This document shows, piece after piece, positions 3,198 to 8,830 of a stretch of 64,000 nucleotides of DNA. Under the pieces are notes generated by a model. The model saw only the letters and a list, made by a program, of their open reading frames with translations, did not search any database and had not been told where the DNA came from. Position numbers and translations under genes: made by a program. Within the stretch, counting starts at the first letter, position 1. Every line of letters starts with the position of its first letter. This DNA is from Salinibacterium sp. SWN248 (GTDB taxonomy: Bacteria > Actinomycetota > Actinomycetes > Actinomycetales > Microbacteriaceae): NCBI RefSeq assembly GCF_015864575.1, contig NZ_JADYWW010000001.1, positions 1,945,719-2,009,718 on the forward strand, in the 5' to 3' direction.

Positions 3198-3893
3198 ATG
3201 AGTTCCCGAAGCGCACGACAGCAGGGTGCGCTGGCGTCATGGAACGACGAACGTGGCTTCGGTTTTATTTCCGTTGACGGCCCGAGCAGCGCCAACGGCG
3301 CGGGCAGCACTGGTAGCGGCAACCGCACCGGCGAAAGCGTCTTTGCCCACATCTCTGCCTTCCCACGCCGCGACGCCCGCCCGGCGCCCGGCGAACGGGT
3401 CAGCTTCACAGTCGAAACCACGAACGACGGCAAGACTCGAGCGCGCAACATCCGCTACCTCTCCGCTTCAGGCCGCCCCATCCGCGCCCGCAAGAGCCGC
3501 CCGGGAACAATGAGTTACGTCGTATTGGCCACCTTCGCGATCGCGATCAGCATCGTCACCGCAATCGGTGCACTCCCGTGGCTCTTCGCAGCGCTTTACC
3601 TCGTGATGAGCGTCATCACTTATGCCTCCTACGCCACCGACAAAAAGGCGGCCCAAACTAGGCAATGGCGGGTCACAGAAAGCGCTCTGCTCGGGCTCGG
3701 ACTCTTCGGCGGCTGGCCCGGAGCCATCGTTGCCCAACAGCGTCTTCGCCACAAAACTCAGAAGCCAATGTTCCGCCAAGCCTTCTGGGGCACCGTGGTT
3801 CTCAACATCCTGGTATTTGCGATCCTGACAACCGCATTGCGCGAACCTGTTATCGAACTCTTTCGCTTGATCGTGACCGCAACCGCGCCCTAG
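3198..3893 (+). CDS. cold-shock domain / DUF1294 membrane fusion protein
   Basis: The protein has 231 residues. Residues 8-75 form a cold-shock OB fold (ALASWNDERGFGFISVDG, then VFAHISAF) with an RNP-1-like GFGFI stretch, so it probably binds single-stranded nucleic acid. Residues 105-225 are a DUF1294 domain: two or three membrane helices around YASYATDKKAAQ, then a GGWPGAIVAQQRLRHK block. The combination is known in bacteria, but its function is not established. The start is probably leaderless: TACCCT at 3186-3191 ends six bases before the ATG and no ribosome site is visible. Confidence 0.85.
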   Translation: MSSRSARQQGALASWNDERGFGFISVDGPSSANGAGSTGSGNRTGESVFAHISAFPRRDARPAPGERVSFTVETTNDGKTRARNIRYLSASGRPIRARKSRPGTMSYVVLATFAIAISIVTAIGALPWLFAALYLVMSVITYASYATDKKAAQTRQWRVTESALLGLGLFGGWPGAIVAQQRLRHKTQKPMFRQAFWGTVVLNILVFAILTTALREPVIELFRLIVTATAP

Positions 3894-3903
3894 CGACCAG
3901 CCG

Positions 3904-4194
3904 TTAGGCCAGCGAGAGAAAGAGTTTCTCGATCTCTTCTGATTGAGGCGAGCCTTCGGCATCCGGATTGATGAGGCACTCCTTCATCGCTTCGGAAATC
4001 ACGAGGAACCCTGCCCGGTCGAGAGCTTTTGAGACTGCAGCCAGCTGGTGCACGACGTCGCGGCATCCGGCTCCCGTCTCGACCGTGGCGATCAGTGCGC
4101 CCAGTTGTCCCTGAGCGCGACGCAAGCGATTCGCAATTTTCTTCTGCGCGTCAGGATCGGCTACCGACACTGATTCGGATGTGGAGGAATCCAT
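3904..4194 (-). CDS. cstR: CstR-type persulfide-sensing repressor (CsoR/RcnR family)
   Basis: A 96-residue all-helical DUF156 repressor (IANRLRRAQGQLGAL, then GCRDVVHQLAAVSKALDRA). Two cysteines, C44 and C73, are 29 residues apart, as in CsoR and CstR. The CsoR copper-ligand His four residues before the second Cys is Ala69 here. Loss of that His with retention of both cysteines is the CstR pattern, in which the thiols form di- or polysulfide links and release DNA. The gene is divergent from a persulfide dioxygenase/rhodanese operon with two palindromic operators between them, which supports the sulfur assignment. A CsoR-like metal sensor is the less likely alternative. Confidence 0.85.
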   Translation of the reverse strand: MDSSTSESVSVADPDAQKKIANRLRRAQGQLGALIATVETGAGCRDVVHQLAAVSKALDRAGFLVISEAMKECLINPDAEGSPQSEEIEKLFLSLA

Positions 4195-4219
4195 AGTTGT
4201 CTCGCTTCTCTCGTGTGAG

Positions 4220-4272
4220 TTGACAGTTTCGATACCCCGTGGGGTATAGTCTGAGCATACCCCCTAGGGTAT
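4220..4272 (+). promoter_or_regulatory. sulfur-operon promoter overlapped by two CstR-type operators
   Basis: A -35-like TTGACA (4220-4225) and a -10-like TATAGT (4245-4250) are separated by 19 bp. A perfect 7-2-7 palindrome, ATACCCCGTGGGGTAT, covers 4232-4247 (spacer plus -10). A second, ATACCCcctaGGGTAT with 6-bp arms, covers 4257-4272. Their centres are 25 bp apart, between the divergent regulator and the operon. C/G-tract palindromes with AT flanks are the known operator type of CsoR/CstR proteins. Binding of both sites by the regulator at 3904-4194 is inference. Confidence 0.8.
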
Positions 4273-4305
4273 TGCAACGGATAGCCAATCAACGGAAGCA
4301 GAGTT

Positions 4306-4491
4306 ATGTGCAGAGCAGTCACGTGTCGCGTATGCGACAAAACAACGTGGGCCGGATGCGGAGACCACATCCAGTCCATCAAGCGCAGCGTGCCAGCATC
4401 CAACTGGTGCAACGGCAAGCACTCTCAGTCGGAGATTGACGCCGCAAAGTCCACTCAGGGCGGCTTCTTTGCCCGCCTTTTCGGTCGTTAG
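4306..4491 (+). CDS. small cysteine-rich protein, TWAGCG family, copy 1
   Basis: A 61-residue protein and first gene of the persulfide operon, with an AG-rich ribosome site (GGAAGCAGAG). It has the pattern MC-x4-C-x2-C, then TTWAGCGDHI and a further Cys at 35, ending in a short basic tail (FFARLFGR). The pattern is shared with the gene immediately downstream. The Cys spacing suggests metal binding or a sulfur acceptor/carrier thiol. No enzyme domain is visible. Placement downstream of the CstR operators implies induction by reactive sulfur. The function is unknown to me. Confidence 0.8.
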   Translation: MCRAVTCRVCDKTTWAGCGDHIQSIKRSVPASNWCNGKHSQSEIDAAKSTQGGFFARLFGR

Positions 4492-4499
4492 GAAATCAC

Positions 4500-4613
4500 A
4501 TGTGCGCACAAGTTACTTGCCAGAACTGCAGTAAACCCACTTGGGCTGGCTGCGGAGAACACATCGAGGATGCCCTCGCCAACGTTGCCGAAAGCGATCG
4601 TTGCCACTGCTAA
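4500..4613 (+). CDS. tiny cysteine-rich protein, TWAGCG family, copy 2
   Basis: This 37-residue ORF is too short for ordinary ORF calling. It starts at ATG 4500, eight bases after the stop of the previous gene. It repeats the same signature, MC-x4-C-x2-C followed by TWAGCGEHI, and ends in CHC, giving six cysteines in 37 residues. Similarity in the first 20 residues to the upstream protein shows a tandem duplication with a shortened C-terminus. Conservation of the Cys pattern between the copies is the evidence that it is translated. It probably shares the metal- or sulfur-binding role of its neighbour. Confidence 0.75.
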   Translation: MCAQVTCQNCSKPTWAGCGEHIEDALANVAESDRCHC

Positions 4614-4691
4614 CACGCAGACACCGTTAACGACCCACCGTCGCTAACGCCATCCCTCCCCCGGACATAGCGAACACTCACTGGAGTAAAC

Positions 4692-6101
4692 ATGCTTCTC
4701 GAACGCATCTATGACACCGACCTCGCTCAGGCTAGCTACTTCATCGGTTGCCAAGCCAAGGGCGAAGCGATCGTTGTTGACCCCCGCCGCGACCTCGATG
4801 TTTATCTTGAGATTGCCGCCAAGAATGGGATGACCATCACGGCCGTCACCGAAACTCACATTCACGCTGACTACCTTTCCGGCACTCGCGAGCTCGCCGC
4901 TCGCACCGGTGCGGAGATTCTGGTGTCTGACGAAGGTGGCCCCGACTGGACCTACGGAAGCGCCTTCGACGGTGCTGTGCGCATGAAAGACGGCCACATC
5001 ATTATCCTCGGCAACATCACGCTGAAGGCTGTTCACACTCCCGGGCACACGCCTGAACACCTTTCTTTCTTGGTCACCGATGGTGCGCAAGCGGACGCTC
5101 CCGGTTTCATGCTGAGCGGAGACTTCGTCTTCGTGGGCGACCTCGGCCGCCCCGATCTCCTTGATGAAGCCGCTGGCGGCATCGACACTCGCTTCGGCGG
5201 AGCGAAGGACATCTTCGCTAGCCTGCGCGACCGCTTCCTCACTCTCCCCGACTATGTGCAGGTTTTGCCTGCCCACGGTGCCGGTAGCGCTTGCGGCAAA
5301 GCTCTCGGTGCAATTCCGACAACCACTGTCGGTTACGAGCGCGCGTTCGCGTGGTGGAGCCACTACGTCGAGAACAACGACGAGCAAGGCTTCATCGACG
5401 AGCTGCTCAACGGTCAACCGGATGCTCACGCCTACTTTGGGCGCATGAAAGTGCAGAACCGTCAGGGCCCGAATGTCATGGGCACCGTTAGCCCGCTGCG
5501 CGAATACACGACCGAGGAAGTCGCGACCGCGCTCGATGCCGACAGCGCCATTCTCATCGACACCCGTCACAACAGCGAAGTTCACCGTGGCACTGTGCCG
5601 CGATCCCTCAACGTTCCGGGCCCCGAGAAGGCCGCAAGCTACGGCGCCTGGGTGTACAACCCCGACACGGAGACGCGGCCCGTCATCCTGCTTGCCGACG
5701 ACCTTGAACACGCGCAAGAGTTGCGCGATCACCTCGTGCGCGTGGGCATCGACACCGTGTCAGGCTTCGTGACGACACTCGATGGGCTCACCCTCGTGGT
5801 GCCCGAGCTCGTCGACCCCGCCACCCTCAATGACGTTGATCGTGTGCTTCTCCTCGACGTTCGCAACAAAACCGAGTTCGCCGAGGGACACATCCCCGGA
5901 GCAGAACAACTGAGCGGCGGCCGCGTCATGTGGTCGCTCGACCAGCTCCCCCATGAGGGAACCATCGTGACCTATTGCCAAAGCGGAGTGCGCAATAGCG
6001 TGGCCGCGAGTGCCCTGCGCCGCGCGGGCTACCACGTTGCCGAACTCGATGGCTCGTACCTTGGTTGGCTGGCAACTGCCAGCGCAGTACCCGCGGTGTA
6101 A
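4692..6101 (+). CDS. persulfide dioxygenase / double-rhodanese fusion (CstB- or Blh-like)
   Basis: A 469-residue protein. Residues 1-230 are a metallo-beta-lactamase fold of the ETHE1 type: THIHADYLSG (H56, H58, D60), VHTPGHTPEH and GDFVFVGDLGRPD supply the mononuclear iron ligands. Residues about 265-350 form a rhodanese homology domain without an active Cys. Residues about 370-460 form a second rhodanese with the catalytic loop YCQSGVRN (C429). The family oxidises glutathione or low-molecular-weight persulfides to sulfite, and the rhodanese handles the sulfane sulfur. The TGGAG ribosome site is well placed. The neighbouring exporter would remove the sulfite formed. Confidence 0.92.
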   Translation: MLLERIYDTDLAQASYFIGCQAKGEAIVVDPRRDLDVYLEIAAKNGMTITAVTETHIHADYLSGTRELAARTGAEILVSDEGGPDWTYGSAFDGAVRMKDGHIIILGNITLKAVHTPGHTPEHLSFLVTDGAQADAPGFMLSGDFVFVGDLGRPDLLDEAAGGIDTRFGGAKDIFASLRDRFLTLPDYVQVLPAHGAGSACGKALGAIPTTTVGYERAFAWWSHYVENNDEQGFIDELLNGQPDAHAYFGRMKVQNRQGPNVMGTVSPLREYTTEEVATALDADSAILIDTRHNSEVHRGTVPRSLNVPGPEKAASYGAWVYNPDTETRPVILLADDLEHAQELRDHLVRVGIDTVSGFVTTLDGLTLVVPELVDPATLNDVDRVLLLDVRNKTEFAEGHIPGAEQLSGGRVMWSLDQLPHEGTIVTYCQSGVRNSVAASALRRAGYHVAELDGSYLGWLATASAVPAV

Positions 6102-6110
6102 CGCGCCCTC

Positions 6111-6899
6111 ATGGAGCCGAATCTGATCATCGCGCTGGCCCTCGCCGTGCTCGTGGGAGTTTCTCTCGGGATGCTCGGCGGGGGCGGCTCGATCCTCACC
6201 GTGCCGATCCTCACCTACGTTGCCGGCTTTGAGCCGCAGCAGGCGATTTCGGCTTCGCTATTTATCGTGGGCGTCACGAGCGCCGTCAGCGTTTTTCATC
6301 ATGCTCGAGCAGGGCGCGTTCGCTGGCGTACCGGATTGATTTTCGGCGTCGCTGGAATGGCAGGCGCTTTTGCCGGAGGCATCGTCGGCGGCTATATCCC
6401 TGGCACAGTCCTGATGGTGCTCTTCGCCGCCATGATGGTCGCCACCGCGACGGCCATGATCCGCGGGCGAAAGAAGGTACCGGCAGGATCAATTCACGAG
6501 CCCACACAGCTCCCGGTCATCCGCATTATTCGAGACGGCTTCTTTGTCGGCATCGCCGCCGGGCTCGTGGGTGCTGGGGGCGGATTCCTCATCGTGCCCG
6601 CGCTCACTCTTCTCGGCGGGCTTCCGGTGGCGGTCGCCGTGGGCACCTCGCTACTGATTATTGCGATGCAGTCGTCGGCAGGGCTTGTCGCCCACCTCTT
6701 TACCGTTGACCTTCCGTGGCCAACCATCTTCGCGTTCACCGCGATCGCCGTTGCGGGCTCGTTTGTGGGTGCCGCTCTCGCGGGGCGCATTCCCGAAACC
6801 GCTCTGCGCAAGGGATTCGGAATCTTCGTTCTCGCGATCGGAGCCTTCGTGCTCGTGCAAGAAATCCCGCAATTTATTTCGCTTGTGACAGGAGCGTGA
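6111..6899 (+). CDS. TauE/SafE family sulfite exporter-like permease
   Basis: A 262-residue integral membrane protein with about eight helices and an internal repeat: GMLGGGGSILTVPILTY near the N-terminus and GLVGAGGGFLIVPALTLLG in the second half. This is the twin-glycine signature of TauE/SafE permeases, which export sulfite, sulfoacetate or related anions. It starts nine bases after the dioxygenase stop, so it is co-transcribed. Sulfite made by the dioxygenase is the likely cargo, inferred from context. Confidence 0.9.
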   Translation: MEPNLIIALALAVLVGVSLGMLGGGGSILTVPILTYVAGFEPQQAISASLFIVGVTSAVSVFHHARAGRVRWRTGLIFGVAGMAGAFAGGIVGGYIPGTVLMVLFAAMMVATATAMIRGRKKVPAGSIHEPTQLPVIRIIRDGFFVGIAAGLVGAGGGFLIVPALTLLGGLPVAVAVGTSLLIIAMQSSAGLVAHLFTVDLPWPTIFAFTAIAVAGSFVGAALAGRIPETALRKGFGIFVLAIGAFVLVQEIPQFISLVTGA

Positions 6900-6902
6900 C
6901 CG

Positions 6903-7430
6903 GTGTCGACTACAACGCCAACTAAAGCTCCCACCGTGGGCTCCCTCGTCGAGGGCTACAGCATCCCTGTCGTGAACGAGCGCGCAGTTCGCGTCGCTGC
7001 GAGCATCCTCTTTCTTGGCGGTGCCGTCTCGATCGGCTTCGCGTTTGTCGAGCATTCTGCGGTGCCGCTTCGCCCCTTCGGCGTGTTCTTCATGATGGAT
7101 ATGCTCCTGCGCGTCACGGTGGGTGATCGCTGGTCACCCACGCTCGCGCTTGGTCGCTTCATCGTTCGCTCGCACGAACCGAACTGGGTTGGCGCCCCTC
7201 AAAAAGAGTTCGCTTGGTGGCTCGGCTATGGTCTTGCGCTGATCTCCTGCGCCGGCATGGGGGTGCTTGGCGCTCCGCTAGAAGCGACCCTCGCACTCTG
7301 CAGCCTGTGCCTCACCATGCTGTTCCTCGAAGCCGCTTTCGGCATCTGCATTGGTTGCTCACTTCAACGCCTGCTTTCGAAAACTCCACCCCAATACTGC
7401 CCAGGCGACACGTGCCGGGTTTCCGAATAA
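6903..7430 (+). CDS. DUF4395 membrane protein with CIGC motif
   Basis: A 175-residue protein with a GTG start three bases after the exporter stop. Four membrane segments are visible, with the DUF4395 features VPLRPFGVFFMMDML and a C-terminal FGICIGCSLQRLL followed by a Cys-containing tail (PPQYCPGDTC). The CxxC inside a membrane segment is shared with the second DUF4395 protein at 29529-30095 (YCLGCQLY), which lies next to a thioredoxin. In this operon it sits between a sulfite exporter and a rhodanese lipoprotein. The biochemical role is not known; a membrane thiol or sulfur-relay partner is my inference. Confidence 0.85.
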   Translation: MSTTTPTKAPTVGSLVEGYSIPVVNERAVRVAASILFLGGAVSIGFAFVEHSAVPLRPFGVFFMMDMLLRVTVGDRWSPTLALGRFIVRSHEPNWVGAPQKEFAWWLGYGLALISCAGMGVLGAPLEATLALCSLCLTMLFLEAAFGICIGCSLQRLLSKTPPQYCPGDTCRVSE

Positions 7431-7454
7431 CCACTCGTTCCACAAGGAGAAATA

Positions 7455-7817
7455 ATGTTCCGTCCCCTCGCCGCTCTCGCCGGTTCCCTCGTCGTGCTGG
7501 CTTCCATCGCTGGATGCTCAGCCGCAGGCGATTCCGTCGAACTCAGTGCTGACACCATACTCATCGACGTTCGAACCCCGGCCGAATATGCGGCAGGGCA
7601 TCTTGAGGGCGCTAACCTCCTCGACCTCAACGGAGGCGAATTTGCTGCAGCACTTCCCACTCTCGACCCCGAGGCTGAGTACGCCGTCTATTGCAAGTCA
7701 GGCAACCGTTCCGGTCAGGCCGTCGCGCTGATGGAAGACGCGGGCTTTGAGAACGTTATTGATCTTGGCTCCATCGGTGAAGCAGAAGCATCCACCCAGA
7801 TCGCAGTTGTGCAGTAA
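7455..7817 (+). CDS. rhodanese-like lipoprotein
   Basis: A 120-residue protein. The signal peptide ends in the lipobox LASIAGC, so the mature protein should be anchored outside the membrane. Residues 30-115 form one compact rhodanese domain: LIDVRTPAEYAAGHLEGA, then the active-site loop YCKSGNRS, whose Cys carries a persulfide. It is the last clear gene of the sulfur operon, with the ribosome site AAGGAG. It probably acts on sulfane sulfur at the outer face of the membrane. Confidence 0.9.
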   Translation: MFRPLAALAGSLVVLASIAGCSAAGDSVELSADTILIDVRTPAEYAAGHLEGANLLDLNGGEFAAALPTLDPEAEYAVYCKSGNRSGQAVALMEDAGFENVIDLGSIGEAEASTQIAVVQ

Positions 7818-7834
7818 CTCAACTCCATCCGTTC

Positions 7835-8830
7835 GTGGCCGCACATTCAAGCAATCTATGGATGCTGCGGCTCCGAACCACTGCGGTGAACAGAACGCCC
7901 GCTTCCAGTACGCACTTCAGCGCCGACAACCGGTTTGACCGCGCCACCGCGGGGTTTTCCCGCGTCGTGGTGCCCGCCGCTCTAGGCGACGTTGTTGTGC
8001 ACGTGGATCCGAATGCTGCTGCGCGCTCAGATACCGCCACTGTGCTTCTCCACGGTGCCGCAGGTTCGTGGACCACATGGTTGCCCCTCATCCGCGCCGC
8101 TCACAGCGCGCAGGAACCATTGCAGAATGTGGTTGCGATCGATCTTCCCGGCTGGGGTGAGAGCGGAAGTGTCCGCCCTGGCACCTCGGTCGAAGACATG
8201 GTGGATGCAGTGGCCCACGTCACGAGAACCCTTGGCTTTGCGAGGTGGAACGTCTTCGGTCACTCTCTGGGAGGGCACCTCGCGCTCACGCTGGCGGCTC
8301 GGTATCCGGAGCGCACGTTGAGCGTGACGGCCATCTCGGTGACCGGACCTAGCGCGCTGGCGGTCCTGCGGCATCCGATTCGGCGGTTCACCGTTCTGCC
8401 GCTGTTGGCAGGGATGTTCGGTGCCATGCGGTTACTTTCCGCACTCGGTCCTGCCGGACGAGTGGTCGTGCATGCGTTGCACCGCATGAGACTCCTCGCA
8501 CCGCTCAGCGCTCCCCTTTTTGAGAACCGACGTGAGCTCGACAGTTCAGTATTCGATTCACTCGCCGCCGAAATCCGTCCGCGCTCGTTCGTTCAGGGTG
8601 CTGAGGCAGCGGCTCGTTACGACGAGCGAGAGTGGTCGAACATTGAGTGCCGAGTCACGCTGGTTCGTGGCGAACGAGACGCCTTTGTGAGCGCCACTGA
8701 CGATGCCTGGTTTGCGAAAGCTCTCCCTCATGCCACCCAGCAGGTGCTGGCGAATGTCGGCCACTTTGCGCACATAGAAACTGTTGGAGTGCGAACGTCA
8801 ACTCCTCGGTCACGACAACTGGCTGCTTAG
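7835..8830 (+). CDS. alpha/beta-hydrolase fold protein
   Basis: About 331 residues from the upstream-most start (GTG 7835). An ATG at 7862 is equally possible, because the first 40 residues look non-conserved. An oxyanion-loop LLHGAAGSWTTW, nucleophile elbow FGHSLGGHLAL (Ser), an acid in VRGERDAFV and His in VGHFAHIE make a complete catalytic triad. A cap region lies between residues 170 and 240. The substrate is unknown. It follows the rhodanese gene by 17 bases and could be co-transcribed, but nothing in it suggests sulfur chemistry. The tail after the His (VGVRTSTPRSRQ) replaces the usual final helix. Confidence 0.8.
   Translation: MAAHSSNLWMLRLRTTAVNRTPASSTHFSADNRFDRATAGFSRVVVPAALGDVVVHVDPNAAARSDTATVLLHGAAGSWTTWLPLIRAAHSAQEPLQNVVAIDLPGWGESGSVRPGTSVEDMVDAVAHVTRTLGFARWNVFGHSLGGHLALTLAARYPERTLSVTAISVTGPSALAVLRHPIRRFTVLPLLAGMFGAMRLLSALGPAGRVVVHALHRMRLLAPLSAPLFENRRELDSSVFDSLAAEIRPRSFVQGAEAAARYDEREWSNIECRVTLVRGERDAFVSATDDAWFAKALPHATQQVLANVGHFAHIETVGVRTSTPRSRQLAA

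What the first reader, a model, noticed from the sequence alone, without database searches (positions are those of the whole stretch)
4306..4613. Tandem tiny Cys proteins (TWAGCG family) heading a persulfide operon
Two adjacent ORFs of 61 and 37 residues share MC-x4-C-x2-C and TWAGCG-x-HI. Conservation of all these positions between copies implies selection. Their location suggests a sulfur carrier, persulfide buffer or metal-binding helper not described in the standard CstR regulon.
Basis: partly seen in the sequence, partly recalled or inferred. Interest (0 to 1): 0.65.

Follow-up and report, generated by a model that had tools for sequence, protein, structure and literature searches.

The report
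Tiny cysteine proteins of sulfur stress
Two tiny, cysteine-rich proteins lead a bacterial operon that detoxifies reactive sulfur; they belong to an unnamed family of actinobacteria that often stands under the same kind of sulfur-sensing repressor, and they probably bind zinc and handle sulfur for the operon's enzymes.

Summary
They are selected genes (dN/dS 0.14 and 0.13) of an unnamed family without a Pfam, NCBIfam or PHROGs model, found in 36 of 296 sampled actinobacterial genomes, own genome included.

The survey supports the sulfur link. A CsoR-family gene, rhodanese domain or TauE lies near the gene in 13 of 20 phylum-sampled loci and 0 of 19 control stretches. Of 82 CsoR-family rows in the loci, 79 lack the copper-ligand histidine. 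The operator published for Streptomyces CsoR stands upstream in 47 of 78 named loci, but in only 3 of 20 phylum-sampled ones.

Two features constrain mechanism. The first cysteine directly follows the start codon in 170 of 171 copies. The last ligand-like position is Cys37 in 62 and His38/39 in 108 of 170 copies, which fits a metal ligand better than a sulfur-carrying thiol. Best reading: a zinc-thiolate miniprotein that buffers or passes sulfane sulfur for rhodanese-domain enzymes. Zinc binding and sulfur transfer are inferred, not shown.

The parts
4306..4491 (+). ORF A: 61-aa TWAGCG-family protein, long type (C35-x-G-K-H, tail GGFFARLFGR)
4500..4613 (+). ORF B: 37-aa TWAGCG-family protein, short type (ends C35-x-C37)
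4232..4247 (.). operator 1, ATACCCCGTGGGGTAT; fits ATACCn6GGTAT published for S. coelicolor CsoR
   Evidence: PMC7533328 passages
4257..4272 (.). operator 2, ATACCCCCTAGGGTAT
   Evidence: PMC7533328 passages
4220..4250 (+). possible promoter TTGACA-19 nt-TATAGT with operator 1 inside it (read by eye; the scan, limited to 16-18 nt spacers, found none)
   Evidence: sequence; one search found 0 promoter-like sites
3904..4194 (-). divergent CstR-type repressor (CsoR family; C-x-C, no copper-ligand His)
4692..6101 (+). persulfide dioxygenase-type MBL domain with two rhodanese stretches
6111..6899 (+). TauE/SafE sulfite exporter
6903..7430 (+). DUF4395 protein
7455..7817 (+). single-domain rhodanese with a lipoprotein-like N-terminus (read by eye; YCKSG active-site Cys)

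Best explanation
A and B are two members (long and short type) of an unnamed actinobacterial family of Cys/His miniproteins that belongs to the CstR (persulfide/polysulfide-sensing) regulon. SHOWN by sequence: they are selected genes; in most near relatives the family gene stands at a CstR-type operator and/or near a CstR-type repressor and rhodanese-domain enzymes (persulfide dioxygenase-rhodanese, CoA-disulfide-reductase-rhodanese, or a lone rhodanese), sometimes with thioredoxin; C2, C7, C10, C18, H21, C35 and one further Cys or His at 37-39 are kept. INFERRED: the fold is a beta-hairpin with a CxxC turn plus a helix whose start carries C18/H21, holding at least one zinc ion. After removal of Met1 the protein begins with a free, acidic Cys2, which with zinc-activated thiolates takes up sulfane sulfur when persulfides rise, buffers it and hands it to rhodanese domains; thioredoxin may reset it. 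So it would do what TusA-like carriers are proposed to do in Firmicute cst-type clusters, with an unrelated zinc-thiolate scaffold. The conserved GFFxRLFGR tail of the long type may dock it to a partner or to the membrane.
For: Regulon: 13 of 20 phylum-sampled loci versus 0 of 19 control stretches have CsoR, a rhodanese-domain gene or TauE (Fisher p 1.3e-5); so do 65 of 80 named loci within 8 kb. Regulator type: of 82 aligned CsoR-family rows in the loci (redundant copies included), 79 are C-x-C without the copper His, 2 are C-H-C (both in L094), 1 is a fragment. Operators: ATACCN6GGTAT within 150 bp upstream in 47 of 78 named, 12 of 19 relative and 3 of 20 phylum loci, with 0 for three control patterns; the window has two such sites, both in this promoter, expected 0.00. 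Partners: the shared feature of the partner enzymes is a rhodanese domain; L192 and L193 have only A-B-rhodanese at this place. Thioredoxin is the nearest tested gene downstream of 11 long copies. Chemistry: 168 of 171 copies read M-C at the start and 2 more have GTG-Cys; C35 in 170 of 170, and Cys37 (62) or His38/39 (108) in 170 of 170. Models: mean pLDDT 83.1 (A) and 82.1 (B), same topology.
Against: No zinc, persulfide or sulfur transfer has been measured. The Cys/His exchange shows that at least that position is not an obligatory sulfur carrier. 7 of 20 phylum-sampled loci have none of the counted genes within 8 kb; the operator is upstream in only 3 of 20 of them and, with a looser pattern, in 6 of 31 phylum-level copies. 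The 13 of 20 are not fully independent: three of the 20 loci come from one genome. Within 600 bp downstream no tested gene was found for 46 of 83 long, 19 of 34 short and 17 of 23 other copies (the caller misses some over-extended ORFs). No fusion to another domain was seen in the few open frames I looked at. pTM is low (0.56, 0.40) and no solved structure resembles the model of A.
Confidence: 0.4

Rival explanations
1. Zinc buffer: the proteins keep zinc available when sulfide and persulfides strip or precipitate it; sulfur is not transferred.
For: Seven kept Cys/His positions in about 38 residues, with Cys/His exchange at the last one. Exogenous sulfide causes a zinc-limitation response and lower zinc in S. 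aureus (PMC5480029, abstract and passages). A P-type cation ATPase (metal not assigned) occurs in 6 of 80 named loci.
Against: The commonest neighbour families are repressor, PDO, rhodanese, thioredoxin and TauE. I did not search for zinc transporters or Zur sites as such, and annotated only some of the 48 clusters seen in 5 or more loci.
Confidence: 0.22
2. Adaptor: a structural-zinc miniprotein that docks to PDO, CoADR or rhodanese (tail GFFxRLFGR) and regulates or localises them.
For: Conserved C-terminal motif beyond a variable linker; the tail is low-confidence in the model (block means 59 and 57), as for a short binding motif.
Against: Most C-x-C copies lack the tail (49 of 62) and a number of them still sit in the same operons; partner enzymes vary.
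Confidence: 0.2
3. Copper or other metal-stress helper regulated by a copper-type CsoR.
For: CsoR-family neighbours; Cys-rich protein; a P-type cation ATPase in 6 of 80 named loci.
Against: Only 2 of 82 CsoR-family rows have the copper-ligand His, both in L094. Copper genes were not searched for as such.
Confidence: 0.04
4. Spurious ORFs or a leader peptide without protein function.
For: Very small ORFs at the 5' end of an operon.
Against: dN/dS 0.14 and 0.13, residues kept across classes, and solo copies away from any such operon.
Confidence: 0.01

Closest known systems
Streptomyces coelicolor ScCsoR circuit (CsoR-like repressor, PDO, rhodanese, sulfite transporter; PMC7533328, passages read)
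   Same: Operator ATACCn6GGTAT with two sites in the promoter; CsoR-like repressor with PDO, rhodanese and sulfite transporter.
   Different: Described there as four genes; no TWAGCG protein is mentioned in the passages read.
Staphylococcus aureus cst operon (CstR; tauE, cstA, cstB, sqr; PMC5480029, abstract and passages read)
   Same: Persulfide-sensing CsoR-family repressor controlling TauE and a PDO-sulfurtransferase.
   Different: Has the multidomain sulfurtransferase CstA and SQR, neither of which is among the genes examined here (3198-8830); no TWAGCG protein in the passages read.
Enterococcus faecalis cst-like operon (CstR, RhdA/RhdB, CoAPR; PMC9405070, passages read)
   Same: CoA persulfide reductase with a rhodanese domain under CstR; the same domain set lies beside a number of TWAGCG genes.
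   Different: No small Cys protein in the passages read.
Bacillus licheniformis yrk cluster (CstR-like YrkD; DsrE/TusA homologues YrkE/YrkI; PMC9918477, passages read)
   Same: Small proteins proposed as sulfane-sulfur carriers in a CstR-type cluster with thioredoxin and TauE.
   Different: Its carriers are DsrE/TusA homologues; A and B match neither in Pfam.

Membership tests
CstR-type persulfide regulon | CsoR-family repressor with two Cys and no copper-ligand His | tested here: met
   Window repressor C..A..C; 79 of 82 rows C-x-C without His
CstR-type persulfide regulon | operator ATACCn6GGTAT at the promoter | tested here: met
   Two sites, expected 0.00; motif from PMC7533328 passages
CstR-type persulfide regulon | target genes for rhodanese, PDO, sulfite exporter or persulfide reductase | tested here: met
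   Pfam; neighbours
CstR-type persulfide regulon | derepression by persulfide/polysulfide | not testable with these tools
   needs experiment
TusA/DsrE/ThiS sulfur-carrier families | match to the family profile | tested here: not met
   No Pfam or NCBIfam model above its cut-off for A or B; the weak hits (E 0.15 and 0.1) are to other families
TusA/DsrE/ThiS sulfur-carrier families | carries a persulfide or thiocarboxylate | not testable with these tools
   needs mass spectrometry
Zinc-finger-like metal proteins | conserved Cys/His ligand set with CxxC knuckle | tested here: met
   C7-x2-C10, C18-x2-H21, C35, then Cys37 or His38/39 in 170 of 170; the pattern itself required C2, C7, C18 and H21, but not C35 or 37-39
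Zinc-finger-like metal proteins | fold match to a known zinc domain | tested here: inconclusive
   No Foldseek match at E 0.001, no Z of 2 or more among 28 chains in the second look; the domain is very small; only the model of A was searched
Zinc-finger-like metal proteins | bound zinc | not testable with these tools
   needs metal analysis
Copper CsoR regulon (CopZ-like helper) | copper-type C-H-C sensor beside the gene | tested here: not met
   2 of 82 rows, both in L094; the window's own repressor has Ala there

The most novel reading that the evidence does not exclude
A new kind of sulfane-sulfur handling protein: a 37-61 residue zinc-thiolate miniprotein with an obligatory free N-terminal cysteine (amine plus thiolate possibly completing a second zinc site: seven side-chain ligands and one amine make eight), which carries or buffers persulfide sulfur for rhodanese domains across Actinomycetota, in place of TusA-type carriers.
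Probability: 0.25. Interest if true: 0.8.

Novelty: new variant of a known kind. Interest (0 to 1): 0.6.

Why it matters
CstR regulons are known for enzymes (rhodanese, PDO, CoA persulfide reductase, TauE, SQR). Here a protein family without a model in Pfam or NCBIfam tracks that regulon in many members of one phylum, and is easily overlooked: 35 of the 40 plasmid records listed show no annotated gene under the match (that gene table is incomplete by its own description). If it carries sulfur or guards zinc, it names the missing carrier or buffer step between persulfide and rhodanese in actinobacteria. The small size makes the question easy to test.

Tried and rejected
Copper helper: disfavoured, since 79 of 82 CsoR-family rows lack the copper His. 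PDO-specific helper (for example an iron chaperone): disfavoured, because a number of copies sit with CoADR-rhodanese or a lone rhodanese and no PDO nearby. Fusions as a clue to partners: of seven weak or long-frame matches fetched, three carry the motif, after long frames in which I recognised no other domain by eye. Known-family match: none in Pfam, NCBIfam or PHROGs above cut-off; phmmer and profile searches of PDB sequences gave only weak hits (best E 0.82 and 0.1). Fold search gave nothing usable. Degraded relatives were set aside: L220 (motif lost) and L211 (stop codon inside, H21 lost). The 10 genus names printed for the 84 plasmid records ('and 2 more' not printed) are actinobacterial by my own knowledge. 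The 80 named genome loci were ranked by similarity to the query, so they cannot show absence elsewhere.

Caveats of the counts: the 80 named loci are the best-scoring of at least 583 and include near-identical copies (L070-L073). The 20 phylum loci were picked by me from 40 matches in 36 genomes by contig position (18 genomes; three loci from G096). The 20 relative loci were also my choice. The 19 controls are arbitrary stretches of the same genomes (one of 20 requested lay beyond its contig); one control has a thioredoxin hit, a family not in the counted set, as has one of the 20 phylum loci. Neighbour profiles were built from the named loci, and the PDO and CoADR profiles cross-hit any rhodanese domain, so the labels PDO and CoADR overlap and I count them as 'rhodanese domain'. 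L044 and L046 were not matched by most regexes (L046 enters only); hence 78 of 80. In one search B copies share the operator of A, so 72 of 140 counts genes and not promoters; one search counts loci. The 91 rows of A2 were chosen by a pattern that fixes M1, C2, C7, C10, K12, W15, G17, C18, G19 and H21, so its 'invariant' list is by construction except for C35; the freer counts are those. dN/dS is a simple pairwise count, not a tree-based test.

Full report
Observation. In the own genome the TWAGCG DNA pattern occurs only here (2 matches, reversed control pattern 0), and the profile search also finds two copies. In the genus both reading frames are under purifying selection: dN/dS 0.141 for A (11 loci, own included, 55 pairs) and 0.126 for B (10 loci, 45 pairs).

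Family. No Pfam, NCBIfam or PHROGs model above its cut-off matches A or B (weak hits at E 0.15 and 0.1 to unrelated families), and no PDB chain matches convincingly. A profile of 18 members finds the family in 30 of 60 relatives and in 36 of 296 genomes of a phylum-wide sample (27 of 199 genera), own genome included in both. A scan of named genomes gave at least 583 encoding stretches, of which the best 80 were kept, all Actinomycetota as I read the titles, from Salinibacterium and Microbacterium to Nocardioides, Mycobacterium MAGs, Bifidobacterium and a Solirubrobacterales MAG. Plasmids carry it too (84 of 72,556 records); in the six plasmid stretches I opened, rhodanese, TauE, MBL-fold, DsrE-annotated, thioredoxin or metal-sensitive-regulator genes lie within the 12-16 kb shown, directly adjacent in some and several kb away in others. 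Phage and viral copies are rare (one phage record; five IMG/VR loci).

Anatomy. Among 169 distinct copies found with a pattern that allows alternatives, C7 is Cys in 169 (Cys or His allowed), C10 in 169 (Cys or His allowed), C18 in 169 (Cys, Ala or Ser allowed), W15 in 168, H21 in 168, K12 in 158 and C35 in 168. All 28 loci newly fetched by the profile search contain a copy fitting the motif, one with Phe for Trp. Two main types exist: a long one with C35-x-G-(x)-H and usually a tail of the form GF[FL]xRLFGR, and a short one with C35-x-C37, usually without tail. Two features stand out. First, Cys2 directly follows the start codon: of 171 distinct copies found without requiring Met, 168 read M-C, 2 V-C (both GTG codons) and 1 (L046) A-C. 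By established knowledge of methionine aminopeptidase, Met before Cys is removed, so the mature protein should begin with Cys. Second, the last ligand-like position is Cys37 in 62 and His38 or His39 in 108 of 170 copies, and none lacks both. Cys/His exchange is typical of metal ligands and is not expected of a thiol that must carry sulfur. That pattern fixed C2, C7, C18 and H21 but left C35 and 37-39 free.

Model. AlphaFold gives the same topology for both: strand 3-6, CxxC turn, strand 13-16, helix from 19 (mean pLDDT 83.1 for A, 82.1 for B; pTM 0.56 and 0.40). C7 and C10 lie in the turn of the hairpin, and C18 and H21 at the start of the helix, as in small zinc domains. No coordinates were available to measure distances, and the PDB comparison of A found no relative. 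The tail of A is low-confidence.

Operon and promoter. Upstream and divergent lies a CsoR-family repressor (Pfam Trns_repr_metal, E 4.5e-20) with two Cys and Ala at the copper-His position (sequence). Two ATACCn6GGTAT sites stand between it and A (4232-4247, 4257-4272), the only two in the window, expected 0.00. The form TACCCN4GGGTA occurs at four places in the own genome, two of them here; the reversed control pattern has three, so the other two are at chance level. S. coelicolor CsoR binds ATACCn6GGTAT, has two sites in its PDO promoter, and its binding is affected by hydrogen polysulfide (PMC7533328, passages). Downstream follow PDO with rhodanese domains, TauE, DUF4395 and a rhodanese with a lipoprotein-like start. 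The own genome holds three CsoR-family genes: this one, a second without the copper His, and one C-H-C copper type.

Survey. BLAST with the window genes finds a CsoR homologue in 56 of 80 named loci, a PDO/rhodanese homologue in 42 and TauE in 17. With profiles, 65 of 80 have CsoR, a rhodanese domain or TauE within 8 kb (45 CsoR plus rhodanese domain, 12 CsoR without it, 7 rhodanese domain without CsoR, 1 TauE alone), 13 of 20 in the phylum sample, 16 of 20 in the relatives sample, and 0 of 19 in control stretches of the same genomes (Fisher 13/20 against 0/19 p 1.3e-5). One control and one phylum locus have a thioredoxin hit, which is not in the counted set. Four of the nine phylum-sample loci from other classes have CsoR and a rhodanese-domain gene (L169-L172). 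Of 82 aligned CsoR-family rows in these loci, 79 are C-x-C without His, 2 C-H-C (both in L094), 1 a fragment. ATACCN6GGTAT lies within 150 bp upstream of a family gene in 47 of 78 named, 12 of 19 relative and 3 of 20 phylum loci (48, 13 and 3 for TACCCN4GGGTA); three control patterns gave 0 in all groups. Several copies without sulfur neighbours still have the operator (for example L037, L068, L076, L206). Against this, 7 of 20 phylum loci have neither repressor nor counted sulfur gene nearby, and a looser operator is found for only 6 of 31 phylum-level copies.

Partners. Nearest hit to the tested profiles within 600 bp of the 140 typed copies (83 long, 34 short, 23 other): a divergent CsoR upstream of 24 long copies, CsoR upstream on the same strand of 11; downstream of long copies another family gene (13), thioredoxin (11) or nothing tested (46); downstream of short copies PDO (9), rhodanese (4) or nothing tested (19) (over-extended ORFs make this an undercount). 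In two genomes of the genus that lack the repressor, PDO and TauE at this place, A and B stand with only the rhodanese (L192, L193; no PDO genome-wide at E 1e-60). The common denominator of the partner enzymes is thus a rhodanese domain, not PDO. Other clusters near the genes include a P-type cation ATPase (6 of 80 loci), a generic ABC ATPase (15) and a YgaP-like membrane domain (7).

Mechanism. I commit to a zinc-thiolate miniprotein that takes up and buffers sulfane sulfur and exchanges it with rhodanese domains, with Cys2 as the likely reactive thiol (0.4). Shown: selection, family, regulon, ligand pattern. Inferred: zinc, N-terminal Cys, persulfide, transfer. The zinc-buffer rival (0.22) draws on the zinc-limitation response to sulfide in S. 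aureus (PMC5480029, abstract and passages). The adaptor rival (0.2) draws on the conserved tail.

Comparison with the known. The regulon is a known kind. The small proteins are not in the CstR or CsoR operons as described in the passages read (PMC7533328, PMC5480029, PMC9405070, PMC9918477, PMC10318464). Searches for the motif and for small Cys proteins with persulfide terms returned no description in their listings (one search returned one malaria paper that I did not open). The library holds open-licence PubMed Central papers only, so absence is not proof. I therefore rate it a new variant of a known kind.

Noticed in passing
L070-L073, 7671-8824: A near-identical module (CsoR-family repressor, TWAGCG gene, overlapping class I SAM methyltransferase with TPMT- and TehB-like matches) occurs in four genera, once on a plasmid; the methyltransferase, examined in L070 only, could act on thiols or chalcogen compounds.
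   Followed up: partly
L192 and L193 (same genus as the window): Stripped operons: A-B-rhodanese with operator(s) in place, while repressor, PDO, TauE and DUF4395 are absent from the site.
   Followed up: partly
L219 (own genome, C1:696385-696612): A second CstR-like (no copper His) CsoR-family gene elsewhere in the own genome; its targets were not examined.
   Followed up: no
L082, L157: The TWAGCG gene sits between a divergent MMPL-type transporter and a tyrosine-recombinase-like gene, in L157 directly after a CsoR-family gene (names from reading the sequences).
   Followed up: no
L211 8286-8375; L220 842-961: Two degraded family copies: a stop codon inside the gene in a 1.4-Mb genome, and a copy that has lost the W-x-G-C-G motif.
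   Followed up: partly
L102, L104, L105, L037, L059, L094; L199 5388-7241: P-type cation ATPase genes within the 16-kb neighbourhood of some family copies; the transported ion was not assigned.
   Followed up: no
window 3198-3893: Cold-shock domain fused to a DUF1294 membrane domain next to the repressor; a gene of this type is also near the operon in the three Salinibacterium loci L033-L035.
   Followed up: no
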